From a virus, in the IMG/VR virus record IMGVR_UViG_3300010233_000342, positions 1 to 20,915 of that record: a stretch of 20,915 bases of DNA; one strand, 5' to 3'. Under the pieces are notes generated by a model. The model saw nothing but the letters and a program-made list of their open reading frames with translations, had not been told where the DNA came from and did not search any database. The number at the start of each line of letters is the position of its first letter. Position 1 is the first letter of the stretch. Shown piece after piece: positions 7,125 to 12,395 of this stretch. The position numbers were made by a program, and so were the translations under genes.

Positions 7125-7546
7125 TCCAAACTGTTCAACCAATTTCGAAACTCGGGTAGGCTTCCGAAGGCATCAATCTTCTTCAAATTCTCGGTCACAT
7201 CCAGGTGAAGACGTTCAAGCCACGTCTTCACGCGCTCACCAGCAGAAGACTGTGGTCGTTGAATCCATTGCTTTGAGTCAGCGCGATATAATCCGCGATA
7301 TGCTCTCACCGCGTTGGCCAATTTGCTGATTTTCTGGCTTCGAGTCATTCTACTCGGACCTTTATTACGTTTCCACTTCCGATACCAAAACGGCATGATT
7401 GCCAAGATAGATGGATCGGTATGCCCGCTGGCAACCATGTTGATCGCGTCGGCGTCGTACTTTTCAAATAACTCGACGCAGTGTGCGTATTCTTTGGGCC
7501 AAATGTCCGCACAATAGTCGGCTTGCTTGTCATAATCGACGCTCAT
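7121..7546 (-). CDS. Hypothetical protein in the head gene cluster
   Basis: 141 residues, basic and rich in Trp and Tyr (FWYRKWKRNKGPSR at about 53-66), mostly helical in appearance. It overlaps its upstream and downstream neighbours by ATGA junctions, so translation is coupled. I do not recognise the family. Because it lies between portal and scaffold, a head-completion, connector or packaging accessory role is possible but not shown. Confidence 0.65.
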   Translation of the reverse strand: MSVDYDKQADYCADIWPKEYAHCVELFEKYDADAINMVASGHTDPSILAIMPFWYRKWKRNKGPSRMTRSQKISKLANAVRAYRGLYRADSKQWIQRPQSSAGERVKTWLERLHLDVTENLKKIDAFGSLPEFRNWLNSLE

Positions 7547-7845
7547 TCCACCTCGAACTTCGTCATCTCAAATTCATGCTCCGGTTTGCTCAACTCTTGC
7601 AACACGTCCAGAAAGATTTGGTACTTTGCAGCCGCGATGTTGTTCGCGCGCGCCTTCGAATTCTCTGGCCCAGCCGCGAGCACGTTCAGCGGCGTCGTGA
7701 GCATCTCGGCGTGTGCTTTGTTGGCATAGGCAGCGATTTGACCTTTGATCACCTTCTCAAGAATCGACCTGCCTTTGTGTTGCAGGAAATCGTTGAGGGC
7801 GATCAGATCAGGCTGGGATAACTGGACTGGCGTTTGGATTAGCAT
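7543..7845 (-). CDS. Hypothetical protein in the head gene cluster
   Basis: 100 residues with an alternating helical pattern (SQPDLIALNDFLQHKGRSIL, then ARANNIAAAKYQIFLDVLQE). The stop overlaps the next start as ATGA. There is no strong Shine-Dalgarno site. In the phage this was probably the first or second gene after the portal; today the attC array and a 52-residue frame lie between them. No family recognised; a small connector-associated protein is one possibility. Confidence 0.65.
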   Translation of the reverse strand: MLIQTPVQLSQPDLIALNDFLQHKGRSILEKVIKGQIAAYANKAHAEMLTTPLNVLAAGPENSKARANNIAAAKYQIFLDVLQELSKPEHEFEMTKFEVE

Positions 7846-7858
7846 GATGAGGGCGTTT

Positions 7859-8017
7859 CTAAAAAAATAGCTTATGAAAACCGATGATCAAATAGGCGAA
7901 CTCAAGTCGAATCCGAAGCCAGAAGATTTCAATTAGCTGGTGGGCGGTGACGTACCAGTACTCCAGTCGTCTAACAAGGCGCTCCAGCCAACGCCGGAGA
8001 TTACTCTTGATTTTCAT
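7859..8017 (-). CDS. 52-residue aromatic/hydrophobic ORF that starts inside attC-A
   Basis: The frame starts at ATG 8017 within the central part of attC-A, with an AAAGG site six bases upstream. It runs out through the attC R'' box and ends at 7859, 13 bases before the next phage gene. The N-terminus is basic (MKIKSNLRRWLERLVRR); the rest is aromatic and hydrophobic (EYWYVTAHQLIEIFWLRI, then FAYLIIGFHKLFF). It could be a membrane-associated peptide. About 15 N-terminal residues are encoded by recombination-site sequence, so the true product may be a fusion made by the insertion, or the frame may be fortuitous. It lies on the transcribed strand of the head operon. Confidence 0.4.
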   Translation of the reverse strand: MKIKSNLRRWLERLVRRLEYWYVTAHQLIEIFWLRIRLEFAYLIIGFHKLFF

Positions 8018-8062
8018 TTGTGGCCTTTCTGTTCCGGCGTGGCTCAGCTTGGGTCGTTAGGC
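7969..8062 (+). repeat. attC-A, integron recombination site
   Basis: The outer boxes are GTCTAAC (R'', 7969-7975) and GTTAGGC (R', 8056-8062), matching RYYYAAC and GTTRRRY. The inner arms are CAGCCAACGCCGG (7985-7997) and CCGGCGTGGCT (8034-8044); they pair with one unpaired extra base on the left arm. This asymmetry is the normal polarity signal of attC and sets the orientation as +. Total length is 94 bases. No convincing cassette boundary is visible to its left. Confidence 0.85.
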
Positions 8063-8089: not shown

Positions 8090-8524
8090 ATGACCAACAC
8101 GGTTGCTATGCTAAGAGAGGTCGCCAACATCGCTGCCGCAGTTCCTTGGTATGTTTCCACGTTGCTGTTGCTCATCGTGCTCGCCCTGAGCGTCGGATGG
8201 ATGGCGATGAGAATAGAGAAAGCCGCCGCCAAATTGACCACCATCCAGACAGCGGCACACGCCTCCGCAATAGAGATAGCCAGCTTGCTTAGCTCACGAA
8301 GTAAGACGGTCGCGTTTCTGCTTTGGCTCCTTTCAGTATCAGGAGTTGCCGTTATATGGTTCGCGTTTCCCGCAGTCACTCGTCTCTCCTGTCTTTTAAT
8401 GGTTCTCGTCGGTGGAGTTTCATTTTTGCTTTTGGCGTATCTGATTATTGAGTTTGTGTTCTGGCGTATGGGTCGGCAAATCGAGCGTGAGACAATGGAT
8501 AGGAAGCAGCGCAGAAATGCCTAA
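8090..8524 (+). CDS. Cassette 1 gene: three-TM membrane protein of unknown function
   Basis: 144 residues. It starts 33 bases after the cassette boundary with only a weak GAAGA site. The TAA stop lies within the R'' box of attC-B (GCCTAAC), a common arrangement in integron cassettes. Membrane segments are at about 21-40 (YVSTLLLLIVLALSVGWMAM), 72-95 (KTVAFLLWLLSVSGVAVIWF region) and 98-125. Between the first two is a 30-residue helical segment, and the C-terminus is basic (MDRKQRRNA). I recognise no family. Small membrane proteins are frequent cassette cargo; a host-surface or phage-exclusion role is only a guess. Confidence 0.7.
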   Translation: MTNTVAMLREVANIAAAVPWYVSTLLLLIVLALSVGWMAMRIEKAAAKLTTIQTAAHASAIEIASLLSSRSKTVAFLLWLLSVSGVAVIWFAFPAVTRLSCLLMVLVGGVSFLLLAYLIIEFVFWRMGRQIERETMDRKQRRNA

Positions 8525-8611
8525 CCAATCGCTGCACCCAACACCGCGATTACGTTCTTGTTTCATTCGAGAGTCTCCTTACGCGGTGTGGGTGAGCTTG
8601 GGTCGTTAGAC
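8519..8611 (+). repeat. attC-B, integron recombination site ending cassette 1
   Basis: The outer boxes are GCCTAAC (8519-8525) and GTTAGAC (8605-8611). The inner arms CACCCAACACCGCG (8535-8548) and CGCGGTGTGGGTG (8582-8594) pair with one extra base on the left arm, giving + orientation. Length is 93 bases. The R'' box contains the stop codon of the cassette 1 gene. The bottom strand has AAGGAG followed by ATGAAA in the centre. Confidence 0.85.
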
Positions 8612-8632: not shown

Positions 8633-8815
8633 ATGAACACAGCACCAAATGACATGGACGAGGCGCTTCGCCTCATCGACAAACTTAACATGATAAACGG
8701 AGCAATACTCATAGCGATTACGCAGAAGGGATCGCTGACAAAATACGAATACAATTTGATATACGCTCGCACGCTCCAAGAATGGGAACAGAAGCATGCA
8801 CGCCCAAACAACTAA
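8633..8815 (+). CDS. Cassette 2 gene: small hypothetical protein
   Basis: 60 residues from the ATG at 8633. The open frame extends back into attC-B, but a start there would lie before the cassette boundary, so the ATG at 8633, 27 bases inside the cassette, is preferred. The protein looks soluble and helical (MDEALRLIDKLNMINGAILI, then TKYEYNLIYARTLQEWEQK). It ends 42 bases before the R'' box of attC-C. No clear Shine-Dalgarno site and no recognised family. Confidence 0.5.
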   Translation: MNTAPNDMDEALRLIDKLNMINGAILIAITQKGSLTKYEYNLIYARTLQEWEQKHARPNN

Positions 8816-8857
8816 GGCGGATTAGAGACACCTCATTTTGTATCTGATCAAGAGGCG

Positions 8858-8966
8858 GCCTAACAAGGTCGCTCCAGCCAACGCGGGAGTCCGGTTTAGG
8901 TTTGCCATTCAGCTTTTTGTTTTTCATTGGTTCTTGGCCTCGCGTGGCTGAGCTTTGGCGTTAGGC
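8858..8966 (+). repeat. attC-C, integron recombination site at the portal gene end
   Basis: The outer boxes are GCCTAAC (8858-8864) and GTTAGGC (8960-8966). The inner arms CCAGCCAACGCG (8874-8885) and CGCGTGGCTG (8941-8950) pair with one extra base on the left, giving + orientation. Length is 109 bases. Read on the - strand, the R' box contains the TAA stop codon of the portal gene, so this box marks the junction between cassette DNA and phage DNA. Confidence 0.85.
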
Positions 8967-11387
8967 CGCAATAATCGGTGGTGCTTGAGCATTTTGCATC
9001 ATTGGTTGCGGCGGCGGTGGCAATGGTGGCACACCCATCGCACCCGGTGGCGGCATCGGCGGACCGCCCGGCCCTTGGCCTATGCCGGGCGGCGGTTGTG
9101 GTGGAACTGCTGCCTGAAGGATTTGAAGAATCTTCTGCAAGGCCGCGTCCTGCTCCTGGTTCTTCTGCGCCTCCTGCCCCGCCACCTGTTGCAGTTGCTT
9201 GATGGATTCTTCCATCGGCGTAATCACCTTCTCCTTGAGCGCGCCCGCCATCTGTGTCATTGACGCCTGCACAACTTCAGTCGCCACCTTCTGGCTGATC
9301 ATCTGAAGCTGCTTGAGCAAATCTTCCTGCTGCGCCTGCGGGTCACCGGCAGCACCTTCCTTGGCGATGACCTTGAACTCGCGCGGCAACCCGGCGTATT
9401 GGAACACCTGATTGAGCATGTCCACGATCTGCGGCACGCCGATCGATTGGATGATCAGCGGTTGGGCAATCAGCGTCTCGACCATCTTGATCATCGTCGT
9501 CGCGATCTGAATGTTGTTGATCCGCTTGCCACCCTCGCGATTGGCCGCAAACCCGTCGATGTCCAGTGACTTCTTGCTGCCTCGGACACCCGCTTTGGTG
9601 CGCCCTGGTTCAGCCTCGTCCTCGACTTCGAACCCGAGCGCCTTTAACTGCTCACGGTTTTTGTCATTAAGCTCGCCGATCTGCGCGAAGATGTCATCGT
9701 CACTGTATGCCATCATCGCCTCATACATGCTCCGCTTGCGGGCGTTCATCCCATCTTCAACAAACCCTCGTGTATGATCCAGTTTTACGGTCGAGTTGCC
9801 GTGAATCGTGGTTATCTCCGTTGCGCTCTGCTCGTGGCCTGCGGGCTGACCAACTTCCTGAGCTGAAAAGCCAAGCATCCGTTCCATCATCCCCAGCATC
9901 GTTGTTATGCCAGTCGTGATCTCCTGAATGTTGGCCTTGGGAAATGAGACGCTATCAAATGCGTCCTGAGTCGTGTTGAACTGGTATCCCAACTCACGTT
10001 TTGATTTGCCGATGAATATCAATTTACGATAGACATCCGAAGCGTTCATTTTCCGAATATCTTCCTCGGAGACGATCTCCTGATTGTAGAATGTCACGTT
10101 AATGAGGTTCTGTTTGACCGAGAGCAGCAATTGCGAGAGGTAATTGCCGAGCATGTCCTGCCACGGAAGAAGTTCGAGCCCAAGACCGGCGTTCAATTCG
10201 CGATTGGTGTCAGCGTCGTACCCATAATACGTCGTTGGCCGAAAACAGAGCGGCTCGGCGAATATCACCGTGTCAGTGTGGCCAAGCACGAATCTGAACC
10301 ACACCGGGTAATCGTAGTCGCCCAATCCCCAATCGCTCGGGATCAACTTTTGGAAGAACGGTAATACGATCGTCGCTTTGTCGTCGTCAGCCAGCGAGTA
10401 AATGTTCAACTGCTTCTGCCGATCCAAGTCGCCGCTGCCAGGCGAAGCGATGCTTGGAAAACTCATCTGACATGGGTAAAGCGTGGCGTAGGGGGTCCAA
10501 TAATCTCTAATCCAGTCGTTGGGCCCGAACGTCACTTTGTCGGTGTTCCAGTAACTCTTGTTCAGCCGCACGTCACGCCAGCGTTGTACGTCCCAATAAC
10601 CCGCGTATTCGCAGCCTGTGTCTGTGTTCAGCGTCGAGGTGCGGTGCGCGAGGTCGAAGAACATCTTCGACGGATGCGGGATCGCCCAGCGGATTCCTTC
10701 CTTCACGACTTCCGCAGCTCCGTCTTCGCCTAGCTGCTCTTCGGTGTACCACTTCTCCATCGGGAAATTGAGCGCGATACCGTACTGAAGCATCTGAAAG
10801 ATCGAATCCCGCTCGGCATTCCGGTAACCCATCTGCGTCGTCATCGTATCTACCCGGTCGGTGATGATCTCGCACTTCATCCGGTTCTTGCTCGTCAGCT
10901 TGAGCGGGTCGTATTTGTAAAGAGGCGTCTGATCGATGTCGGAAAAGAGTTTGGCCCAGCGAATCCTCGAGTACGCCAGCACGAGCGGGATGTGGATCTC
11001 GGTGAAGACTGGAATGTTGAGCTTCAGCGCTGGCGTCTTGGTTCCAGGCCAGCAGCAAGCGTTGCCCTTATCGTCCATGACCGGCACCAGCAAATGAGTC
11101 AGACCCCAGCTTTTGGCGATCTTGACGGATTCTTCCTCGCCGAGATTCTTGCTCAGCAAACCTTCGACCAGCGTTGCGGCCGTCTGACGGAACGGCACGT
11201 CATACGCCCGGTCAATCCCCCACCACAACCGCGCCTCGCGCATACAGCGTGTGATGCCATCCTTCGCGCGCGAGGAGATGAGTTCGATTAGCTCTTTGGT
11301 TTTGGCTCCTGGCTTTTCAGCCGTGAAGAGTGCCTTGAGCTTTGCTTGGGTGATGCCTGCTTTTTCGAGTTGGGCGGGAGTAGCCAC
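8961..11387 (-). CDS. Portal protein
   Basis: 808 residues from a GTG one base after the upstream TAA. The portal forms the dodecameric ring at the capsid vertex through which the terminase pumps DNA and to which the tail attaches. The length and layout fit the large portals of podovirus-like phages: a helical N-terminus, a mixed alpha/beta body (WDVQRWRDVRLNKSYWNTD; PLYKYDPLKLTSKN), a helical crown region about 640-760 with coiled-coil character (QEDLLKQLQMISQKV), and a Pro/Gly/Met-rich disordered tail (about 765-808). Position supports the call: it is divergent from the large terminase and heads the operon with scaffold and capsid genes. The stop codon lies in the R' box of attC-C. There is no single diagnostic motif, so the call rests on overall pattern and context. 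Confidence 0.8.
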   Translation of the reverse strand: MATPAQLEKAGITQAKLKALFTAEKPGAKTKELIELISSRAKDGITRCMREARLWWGIDRAYDVPFRQTAATLVEGLLSKNLGEEESVKIAKSWGLTHLLVPVMDDKGNACCWPGTKTPALKLNIPVFTEIHIPLVLAYSRIRWAKLFSDIDQTPLYKYDPLKLTSKNRMKCEIITDRVDTMTTQMGYRNAERDSIFQMLQYGIALNFPMEKWYTEEQLGEDGAAEVVKEGIRWAIPHPSKMFFDLAHRTSTLNTDTGCEYAGYWDVQRWRDVRLNKSYWNTDKVTFGPNDWIRDYWTPYATLYPCQMSFPSIASPGSGDLDRQKQLNIYSLADDDKATIVLPFFQKLIPSDWGLGDYDYPVWFRFVLGHTDTVIFAEPLCFRPTTYYGYDADTNRELNAGLGLELLPWQDMLGNYLSQLLLSVKQNLINVTFYNQEIVSEEDIRKMNASDVYRKLIFIGKSKRELGYQFNTTQDAFDSVSFPKANIQEITTGITTMLGMMERMLGFSAQEVGQPAGHEQSATEITTIHGNSTVKLDHTRGFVEDGMNARKRSMYEAMMAYSDDDIFAQIGELNDKNREQLKALGFEVEDEAEPGRTKAGVRGSKKSLDIDGFAANREGGKRINNIQIATTMIKMVETLIAQPLIIQSIGVPQIVDMLNQVFQYAGLPREFKVIAKEGAAGDPQAQQEDLLKQLQMISQKVATEVVQASMTQMAGALKEKVITPMEESIKQLQQVAGQEAQKNQEQDAALQKILQILQAAVPPQPPPGIGQGPGGPPMPPPGAMGVPPLPPPPQPMMQNAQAPPIIAA

Positions 11388-11792: not shown

Positions 11793-12395
11793 ATGCAACA
11801 AGGCATCTGTATCGAGTGCGGCTCCGTTTTTCAAGACCTTCCTTCAAGAATACGTCGAACAAAGTTTTGCAGCCGCACCTGCTCAAGTAACAGCAAAAGA
11901 CGATCGGTTGAGGAAAGATTTTGGAAATATGTAACTAAGGGCGATGGCTGTTGGCCTTGGATTGGCACAACGAACCATGATGGTTACGGGGTAATCAGAT
12001 CGCGATTGGCCTCTGGTCGCAGAGAATCAATATTAACTCACAGAGTGTCTTGGAAAATTCACTATGGAGCAATTCCAGATGAACTAGAGGTTTGTCATAA
12101 TTGCGACAATCCACCGTGTGTGAGACCGGATCATTTGTTTCTTGGAACTCATAAAGAAAACATCGAGGACGCTACTGCCAAAGGCAGAATGAAGGGCTTG
12201 AAAGGAGAACTTAATACAAACTCGAAACTCACCGAGGAAAACGTGTTGGAAATTCGTGCGATGAATTCAAAGGGTGCTTCTCGAACTGCAATAGCAAAAC
12301 AATTTGATGTGAGCGTAACACTAATATCGGGCATAGTTAGTGGAAGATCGTGGAAACACTTACTTCCAAAGTCCGAGCAATTGACTATGTTCTAA
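11793..12395 (+). CDS. HNH endonuclease (HNH_3-like) with N-terminal zinc knuckle and C-terminal helix-turn-helix
   Basis: 200 residues with a good AAAGGG site six bases before the ATG. The N-terminus has a zinc knuckle (Cys6, Cys9, Cys26, Cys30). The nuclease core at about 53-125 shows CWPWIG, a helix with THRVSW, then the cluster CHNCDNPPCVRPDHLFLGTH followed by ENIEDA, the usual HNH_3 order with Asp113-His114. The C-terminus (about 146-190) reads LTEENVLEIRAMNSKG, then IAKQFDVSVTLISGI and GRSWKHL, a DNA-binding module common in homing HNH proteins. It overlaps the possible terminase start. It stands where a small terminase gene would be expected, so it could be a homing gene or a packaging-associated nuclease; the module structure favours homing. 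Confidence 0.85.
   Translation: MQQGICIECGSVFQDLPSRIRRTKFCSRTCSSNSKRRSVEERFWKYVTKGDGCWPWIGTTNHDGYGVIRSRLASGRRESILTHRVSWKIHYGAIPDELEVCHNCDNPPCVRPDHLFLGTHKENIEDATAKGRMKGLKGELNTNSKLTEENVLEIRAMNSKGASRTAIAKQFDVSVTLISGIVSGRSWKHLLPKSEQLTMF

What the first reader, a model, noticed from the sequence alone, without database searches (positions are those of the whole stretch)
8957..8970. Portal stop codon is part of the attC-C outer box
The R' box GTTAGGC (8960-8966) read on the - strand gives the last portal codons and stop (GCG GCC TAA C). The phage DNA to the right of the crossover (TTAGGC...) therefore belongs to the portal gene, which pinpoints the insertion site: recombination at the 3' end of the portal gene without damage to its reading frame. 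The original phage may have had a G^TT site here, or a pre-existing attC-like site.
Basis: partly seen in the sequence, partly recalled or inferred. Interest (0 to 1): 0.6.

Follow-up and report, generated by a model that had tools for sequence, protein, structure and literature searches.

The report
Phage gene stop inside integron site
In a soil phage, a block of bacterial integron gene cassettes sits so exactly behind a structural gene that the gene's stop codon is part of the cassette recombination site, and other phages carrying the same kind of site also start and stop their own genes inside it.

Summary
The three attC sites are real: covariance model from 11 sites, 22 pairs, 92.6% paired; 7 of 7 bacterial matches of their core motif are Verrucomicrobia. 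Ten relatives without attC at this place show the original arrangement: in 8 of 10 the portal stop lies inside the start of the next small gene; in 2 of 10 a non-attC insert follows GCC-TAA. But the empty site is an overlap of two genes, not free intergenic DNA. The 100-aa gene was kept only because about 40 bases of the overlap are duplicated, and the left junction has no integron box, so one clean integrase insertion is not enough. Beyond the finding: in six phage records with this attC type the attC bottom strand is the phage coding strand. Genes start in the attC loop (17 of 19 sites have an open ATG, 7.8 expected) and stop in its arm, among them two methyltransferases, YqaJ, RusA and Lar. 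Verrucomicrobial chromosomes rarely show this.

The parts
8960..8966 (+). R' box GTTAGGC of attC-C; crossover G^TT at 8960/8961
8961..8963 (-). TAA stop codon of the portal-like gene, inside the R' box
8961..11387 (-). portal-like protein, 808 aa
   Evidence: ten relatives; solved portals E 0.0012
8858..8966 (+). attC-C (109 nt); outer arms pair for 10 bp (GCGGCCTAAC/GTTAGGCCGC), 3 bp beyond the box
8519..8611 (+). attC-B (93 nt), 91.5 bits
7969..8062 (+). attC-A (94 nt), 88.5 bits
8090..8524 (+). cassette gene, 144-aa membrane-type protein; its stop lies in R'' of attC-B; no relative found
8633..8815 (+). cassette ORF, 60 aa (85 aa if started at 8558)
8718..8927 (-). 69-aa ORF starting at an ATG in the attC-C loop (8925-8927), GAGG upstream; coding status unproven
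8420..8566 (-). 48-aa ORF starting at an ATG in the attC-B loop (8564-8566), AAGGAG 8 nt upstream; coding status unproven
7859..8017 (-). 52-aa ORF starting at an ATG in the attC-A loop (8015-8017), AAAGG upstream, leaving the array towards the 100-aa gene
7808..7850 (-). second, portal-end-like copy of the ancestral overlap, now only the start of the 100-aa gene
7543..7845 (-). 100-aa gene that overlaps the portal end in relatives
7855..7857 (+). the only GTT between the 100-aa gene and attC-A (GTTTCTA, not GTTRRRY): no integron box at the left junction

Best explanation
A three-attC cassette array without an integrase (a CALIN) of the Verrucomicrobia type was placed directly behind the native stop of the portal gene. 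The ancestral end ..GCC TRA lies one or two bases from the outer-box sequence GCCTAAC, so it served either as a secondary (attG-like) integrase target or as the pairing stretch of the join, and now forms the outer half of attC-C's R' box. The array lies with its attC bottom strand as the phage coding strand, so late transcription runs portal, TAA in R', attC loops with SD-like + ATG, then the 100-aa gene. The next gene was saved by a second, non-integron junction that brought in another copy of about 40 bases of the ancestral portal/100-aa overlap. Shown: positions, attC identity, overlap in relatives, duplication, lack of a box on the left, recurrence of the start/stop layout in other phages. 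Inferred: use of an integrase, order of events, translation of the loop ORFs.
For: Portal ends homologous, GCCT[G/A]A in register in all 8 aligned rows. Overlap of the portal end with the next gene in L005-L008 and in the distant L067-L070. attC model: 92.6% of cells paired, 8 pairs changed on both sides, shuffles 83.7%. Same attC family in five Verrucomicrobia MAGs (54, 7, 7, 26, 10 sites; lower bounds), two of which hold an IntI over the family cut-off. Tree: window and the L003/L004 insertion fall in different branches, so the insertions look independent. Layout: ATG in the loop open through the site 17/19 in phages (7.8 expected) against 26/75 in hosts; domains of attC-started genes begin at residues 24-27.
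Against: The left side has no GTTRRRY, so nothing there shows integrase work. The native sequence in three relatives is GTCAGGC, not G^TT. The right flank TTAGGCCGCA resembles the start of cassette 3, TTAGACCGCA, which would fit a donor-derived end as well. The window's own cassette genes look like ordinary top-strand cassettes, and codon scores decide neither strand. Stops in the R' box alone are not significantly commoner in phage than in host attC (5/19 against 7/75, p 0.06).
Confidence: 0.6

Rival explanations
1. The attC donated the stop. Illegitimate recombination joined array and portal inside or just upstream of GCCTAAC; the R' box, and perhaps GCG before it, is donor DNA and re-closed a slightly shortened portal frame.
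For: Right flank TTAGGCCGCA is 9/10 like the start of cassette 3, TTAGACCGCA; the penultimate codon GCG differs from CCA of five relatives; in other phages the attC visibly supplies tail and stop: RusA ..NDPS*, G008 genes ..NDPS* and ..NDKAQ*; left junction without a box.
Against: GCCT.A is conserved in all aligned relatives and the portal has its full homologous length, so no donor is needed.
Confidence: 0.27
2. The phage had an attC here before, and cassettes entered by attC x attC recombination.
For: The sister record G008 carries three attC, so arrays do live in this phage group.
Against: No attC in the five portal relatives G006, G007, G009, G010, G015; in G008 they lie at 31293-31899, not at the portal.
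Confidence: 0.09
3. Coincidence: an array inserted anywhere tolerable, and the box consensus GTTRRRY (with TTA) happens to give a TAA in the portal frame.
For: Every R' box RYYTAAC carries a TAA on the bottom strand, in one frame of three; 7/75 host attC also end a long bottom-strand frame there.
Against: The portal end is homologous to that of relatives at this very base, so the place, not only the triplet, is right.
Confidence: 0.04

Closest known systems
CALINs in virulent and temperate phages (Qi et al. 2023, PMC9892861; abstract, section 3.4 and passages read)
   Same: attC arrays without integrase in phages; they discuss GTTRRRY-like motifs at array borders and illegitimate recombination; five of six tested phage attC recombined with attI1
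   Different: Verrucomicrobia-type attC, placed behind a portal stop; phage genes start in the attC loop and stop in its arm. In TJE1 the one site our model finds (1016-1075) has the usual top-strand layout; the passages read do not describe starts inside attC ('start codon': 0 hits)
ORF-11 of attI1 ending in the cassette core site (review PMC8876359, passages read)
   Different: there the top strand, TAG at positions 3-5, an 11-codon leader; here the bottom strand, TAA, an 808-codon structural gene
short ORFs within attC helping ribosomes through arrays (same review, passages)
   Same: translation start inside attC
   Different: there a short helper ORF on the cassette-gene strand; here starts on the opposite strand that become N-termini of whole phage proteins
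attG secondary sites (Loot et al. 2024; seen only as a citation in PMC12444791)
   Same: cassettes entering DNA outside attI/attC
   Different: the target here is known only through relatives 74-78% identical in portal protein, and the second junction is not integron-like

Membership tests
attC site | R''/R' and L''/L' inverted boxes that pair on the bottom strand with unpaired bases on one arm | tested here: met
CALIN | at least two attC and no integron integrase nearby | tested here: met
   three attC; no Phage_integrase domain in the 20,915-base record, which is a fragment
integron cassette insertion at a secondary (attG) site | R half from the target on the right and G^TTRRRY on the left | tested here: inconclusive
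   right compatible with target origin; left box absent
integron cassette insertion at a secondary (attG) site | recombination by an integron integrase | not testable with these tools
   needs an assay
canonical gene cassette | one top-strand gene ending at its attC | tested here: met
   144-aa ORF stop lies in R'' of attC-B; the 60-aa ORF ends about 40 nt before attC-C
phage layout with gene start in the attC loop | bottom-strand ATG in the loop, frame open through L''-R'' | tested here: met
   3 of 3 window sites, 48-69 codons; that these ORFs are translated was not tested
phage portal protein | sequence or fold match to known portals | tested here: inconclusive
   E 0.0012 to two solved portals; no Pfam/PHROG hit; models useless

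The most novel reading that the evidence does not exclude
In phages of Verrucomicrobia, attC sites act as portable gene junctions on the phage coding strand: the arm closes the upstream gene (TAA ending at the crossover, or NDPS*/NDKAQ*), the loop offers a start, often with a Shine-Dalgarno-like sequence, and L''-R'' become a 20-25 residue N-terminal tail of the next phage protein. Phage genes thereby become reverse-oriented cassettes that an integron integrase could swap without breaking any frame; the portal stop in R' is the docking end of such a system.
Probability: 0.45. Interest if true: 0.78.

Novelty: new variant of a known kind. Interest (0 to 1): 0.57.

Why it matters
It gives a case in which the pre-insertion state behind a phage structural gene can be read from relatives, and it points to a way in which phages can take and exchange genes through the host's integron machinery without breaking their packed gene order. 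The start-in-loop, stop-in-arm layout is a testable rule for how mobile hairpins can be built into operons.

Tried and rejected
Terminase as probe: no relatives in viral contigs or annotated phages. Portal in annotated phages and in 387 Verrucomicrobia-phylum genomes: none. A stricter R''-L'' attC pattern: 0 viral hits. The 144-aa cassette protein: nothing in 196 genomes or viral contigs; array DNA in annotated phages: none. Cassette ORFs against PADLOC: none. Codon scores for cassette and loop ORFs: near zero for both strands, not decisive. AlphaFold twice: mean pLDDT 31.8 and 34.7, so no fold search was made. P12002L: only a weak attC match (E 0.27) between two methyltransferase genes lying on its bottom strand; not counted.

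Considered and rejected: that L003/L004 hold a decayed attC (no model hit); that the portal is cut short by a long way (full homologous length); that the ATG excess in loops only reflects base composition (shuffling the loop letters gives 7.8 of 19 expected, 17 seen; top strand 4 seen, 5.3 expected).

Rows dropped before counts: of 79 host matches, 75 were used (four cut-off or very short ones left out: L058 4224-4324, L011 121-225, L059 436-485, L051 2704-2774); of phage matches the fragment L018 1729-1777 was left out (19 used). Sites of one record are not independent. The 11 training rows of model R1 are among the counted sites. The host matches come from five MAGs and from chosen contigs.

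Full report
What was checked. The window is the whole of a 20,915-base IMG/VR record. At 8957-8970 it reads GGCGTTAGGCCGCA. On the minus strand this is ..GCG GCC TAA C.., the end of an open frame of 808 codons, 8961-11387. The frame ends ..PPIIAA*, and its TAA is TTA 8961-8963 inside the R' box GTTAGGC 8960-8966.

Are these attC sites? Three sites, 7969-8062, 8519-8611 and 8858-8966, show the R''-L''...L'-R' order and fold on the bottom strand (z-scores -1.6, -3.1, -2.0, so folding energy alone is modest). An L'-R' motif shared by attC-A and attC-B matched seven stretches in 84,980 bacterial and archaeal species genomes; all seven are Verrucomicrobia MAGs, five assemblies. Eleven sites aligned support one structure of 22 pairs: 92.6% of cells paired against 83.7% in shuffles, 8 pairs changed on both sides. 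The model R1 finds exactly these three in the window and 54, 7, 7, 26 and 10 sites in the five MAGs, lower bounds because only 150 candidates per genome are scored. Two of the MAGs, and one viral record, hold an integron integrase over the family cut-off (TIGR02249, 3 of 8 records searched). The window has no Phage_integrase domain. It is a CALIN of a verrucomicrobial kind in a phage.

Is the long gene a portal? Pfam and PHROGs are silent. A profile of ten relatives matches two solved phage portals at E 0.0012-0.0013 around a GLGD..P motif. The gene lies between terminase (phrog_2, E 7e-20) and capsid-like genes. Structure prediction failed. I keep 'portal' as likely, not proven.

The empty site. 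Six portal relatives at 74-78% identity came from viral contigs (L003 and L004 have identical portals), and four more distant ones through the capsid (one of five distant capsid relatives, L071, gave no portal in its stretch). In L005, L006 and L007 the portal ends ..ALIPA or ..AFIPA with GCC TGA CC, and in L008 two codons earlier; in all four the stop lies inside the start of the next gene, which begins MLT.. in another frame. In L067-L070 the portal stop also lies inside a small gene in the same relative frame. So the overlap looks ancestral: 8 of 10 relatives have it. In L003/L004 the portal ends GCC TAA A and is followed by about 340 bases with an ORF of their own and no attC; after that the next gene starts again from a second copy of the overlap. 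The window shows the same pattern with the array instead: the 100-aa gene keeps a start (MLIQTPVQLSQPD..) whose other frame reads ..NPNASPVIPA*, a diverged second portal end. The tree puts the window with L008 and L003/L004 with L005-L007 (both branches 100/100), so two independent insertions at one place are the simplest reading. All eight aligned ends share GCCT[G/A]A in register.

Right: the DNA behind the crossover is the portal end, at its homologous place, and the frame is intact. Right also that a near-box was already there: GTCAGGC in L005-L007, TTTAGGC in L003/L004. Not right: an intergenic empty site. Insertion of cassettes at that base in the ancestral arrangement would have cut the start off the 100-aa gene. 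The duplicated overlap of about 40 bases, and the lack of any GTTRRRY on the left (the only GTT there is GTTTCTA at 7855), call for a second, non-integron junction, for instance recombination with another phage. Nor can the origin of TTAGGC be fixed: a donor R' box would read the same, the next bases (CGCA) resemble the start of cassette 3 (TTAGACCGCA), and the arms of attC-C pair for 10 bp, three beyond the box. I put target origin at 0.6 and a donated stop at 0.27.

A wider pattern. The same attC family occurs in five further viral records: G008 (the 34-kb record of relative L005, three sites at 31293-31899, far from its portal), G011, G012, G013 and G014. G011 also carries the integrase, and its ORFs look to me like a Mu-type phage (my reading, not a family search). 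In seven arrays of six records the attC bottom strand is the coding strand of the flanking phage genes (7/7, p 0.016, my reading). On that strand genes stop in the attC arm: TAA in R' for the window portal, a G011 methyltransferase (..SFAA*) and another G011 ORF, and two G014 ORFs including a YqaJ exonuclease; or a few bases on, as ..NDPS* (RusA in G012, an ORF in G008) or ..NDKAQ* / ..NDKAQR* (two ORFs in G008). And genes start in the loop: a G008 DNA methyltransferase (phrog_954, E 6e-62, domain from residue 27), a G011 methyltransferase (phrog_799, E 6e-23, from residue 24) and a G013 Lar-like protein (phrog_599, E 3e-9, from residue 26), so the conserved domain begins just where the attC ends.

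Numbers. A loop ATG open through the rest of the site on the bottom strand: 17/19 phage sites, 7.8 expected when loop letters are shuffled (none of 200,000 simulations reached 17; without the window 14/16, 6.9 expected, P 3e-5). Top strand: 4/19, 5.3 expected. Host sites: 26/75, 17.3 expected, P 0.011, so a mild excess there too. ORFs of 50 codons or more from the loop: 14/19 against 6/75 (p 1.8e-8; without the window 12/16, p 8e-8). Bottom-strand frames of 80 codons or more ending in the first 30 nt: 11/19 against 7/75 (p 1.8e-5). Top-strand frames of 80 codons or more ending near R'': 9/19 against 68/75 (p 9e-5). Against the pattern: stops in the R' box alone do not differ significantly (5/19 against 7/75, p 0.06); sites within a record are not independent; the window's own cassettes have ordinary top-strand ORFs (144 and 60 aa), and none of its three loop ORFs (69, 48, 52 codons) has a clear codon signal, although all three have SD-like letters upstream.

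Known or new. Phage CALINs are known (Qi et al. 2023, PMC9892861: abstract, section 3.4 and passages read), including the thought that GTTRRRY-like border motifs and illegitimate recombination brought them in. A stop codon within the 7-bp core box closing a leader ORF is known from attI1 ORF-11 on the top strand, and short ORFs within attC are known to help translation (review PMC8876359, passages read). I found no description of phage genes starting in attC loops on the bottom strand, in searches in an open-access library that lacks most subscription journals; of those hits I read only the papers named here and the abstracts or passages of PMC4670013 and PMC12444791. So: a new variant of a known kind. 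Stop placement is documented by sequence; translation and integrase use are inferred.

Noticed in passing
G011 C1:2227-4077 (L016, L033, L036), 37-kb viral record: A viral record whose ORFs resemble a Mu-type phage carries a full integron: integrase over the TIGR02249 cut-off (275 bits, 335-aa frame), two attC, and a DNA methyltransferase gene in reverse orientation starting in one attC and stopping in the other.
   Followed up: partly
L003 6129-6464 and L004 (same region): Independent non-attC insert behind the portal stop with a new ORF fused to the first copy of the next gene's start (MLTLSPQPLSQPK-MDDLRRRL..), and a duplicated overlap: the portal end is a repeated insertion place.
   Followed up: partly
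L018 1729-1777, 2457-2583, 2802-2928: A 5-kb phage contig with attC copies or fragments whose bottom strand reads NDPSSPTAGGGSGGAKPKG, translated into phage ORFs.
   Followed up: partly
window 8855-8864 and 8960-8969: attC-C arms match for 10 bp (GCGGCCTAAC / GTTAGGCCGC), three beyond the box, and its right flank is 9/10 like the start of cassette 3; neither is explained.
   Followed up: no
L006 downstream of 4383: Another insertion follows the 100-aa gene in this relative, with reading frames that look like a transposase or repeat element.
   Followed up: no
window 11793-12395 (+): HNH endonuclease gene (phrog_1872, E 3e-32), on the strand opposite to the portal, with relatives in L003-L006 and L008.
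   Followed up: no
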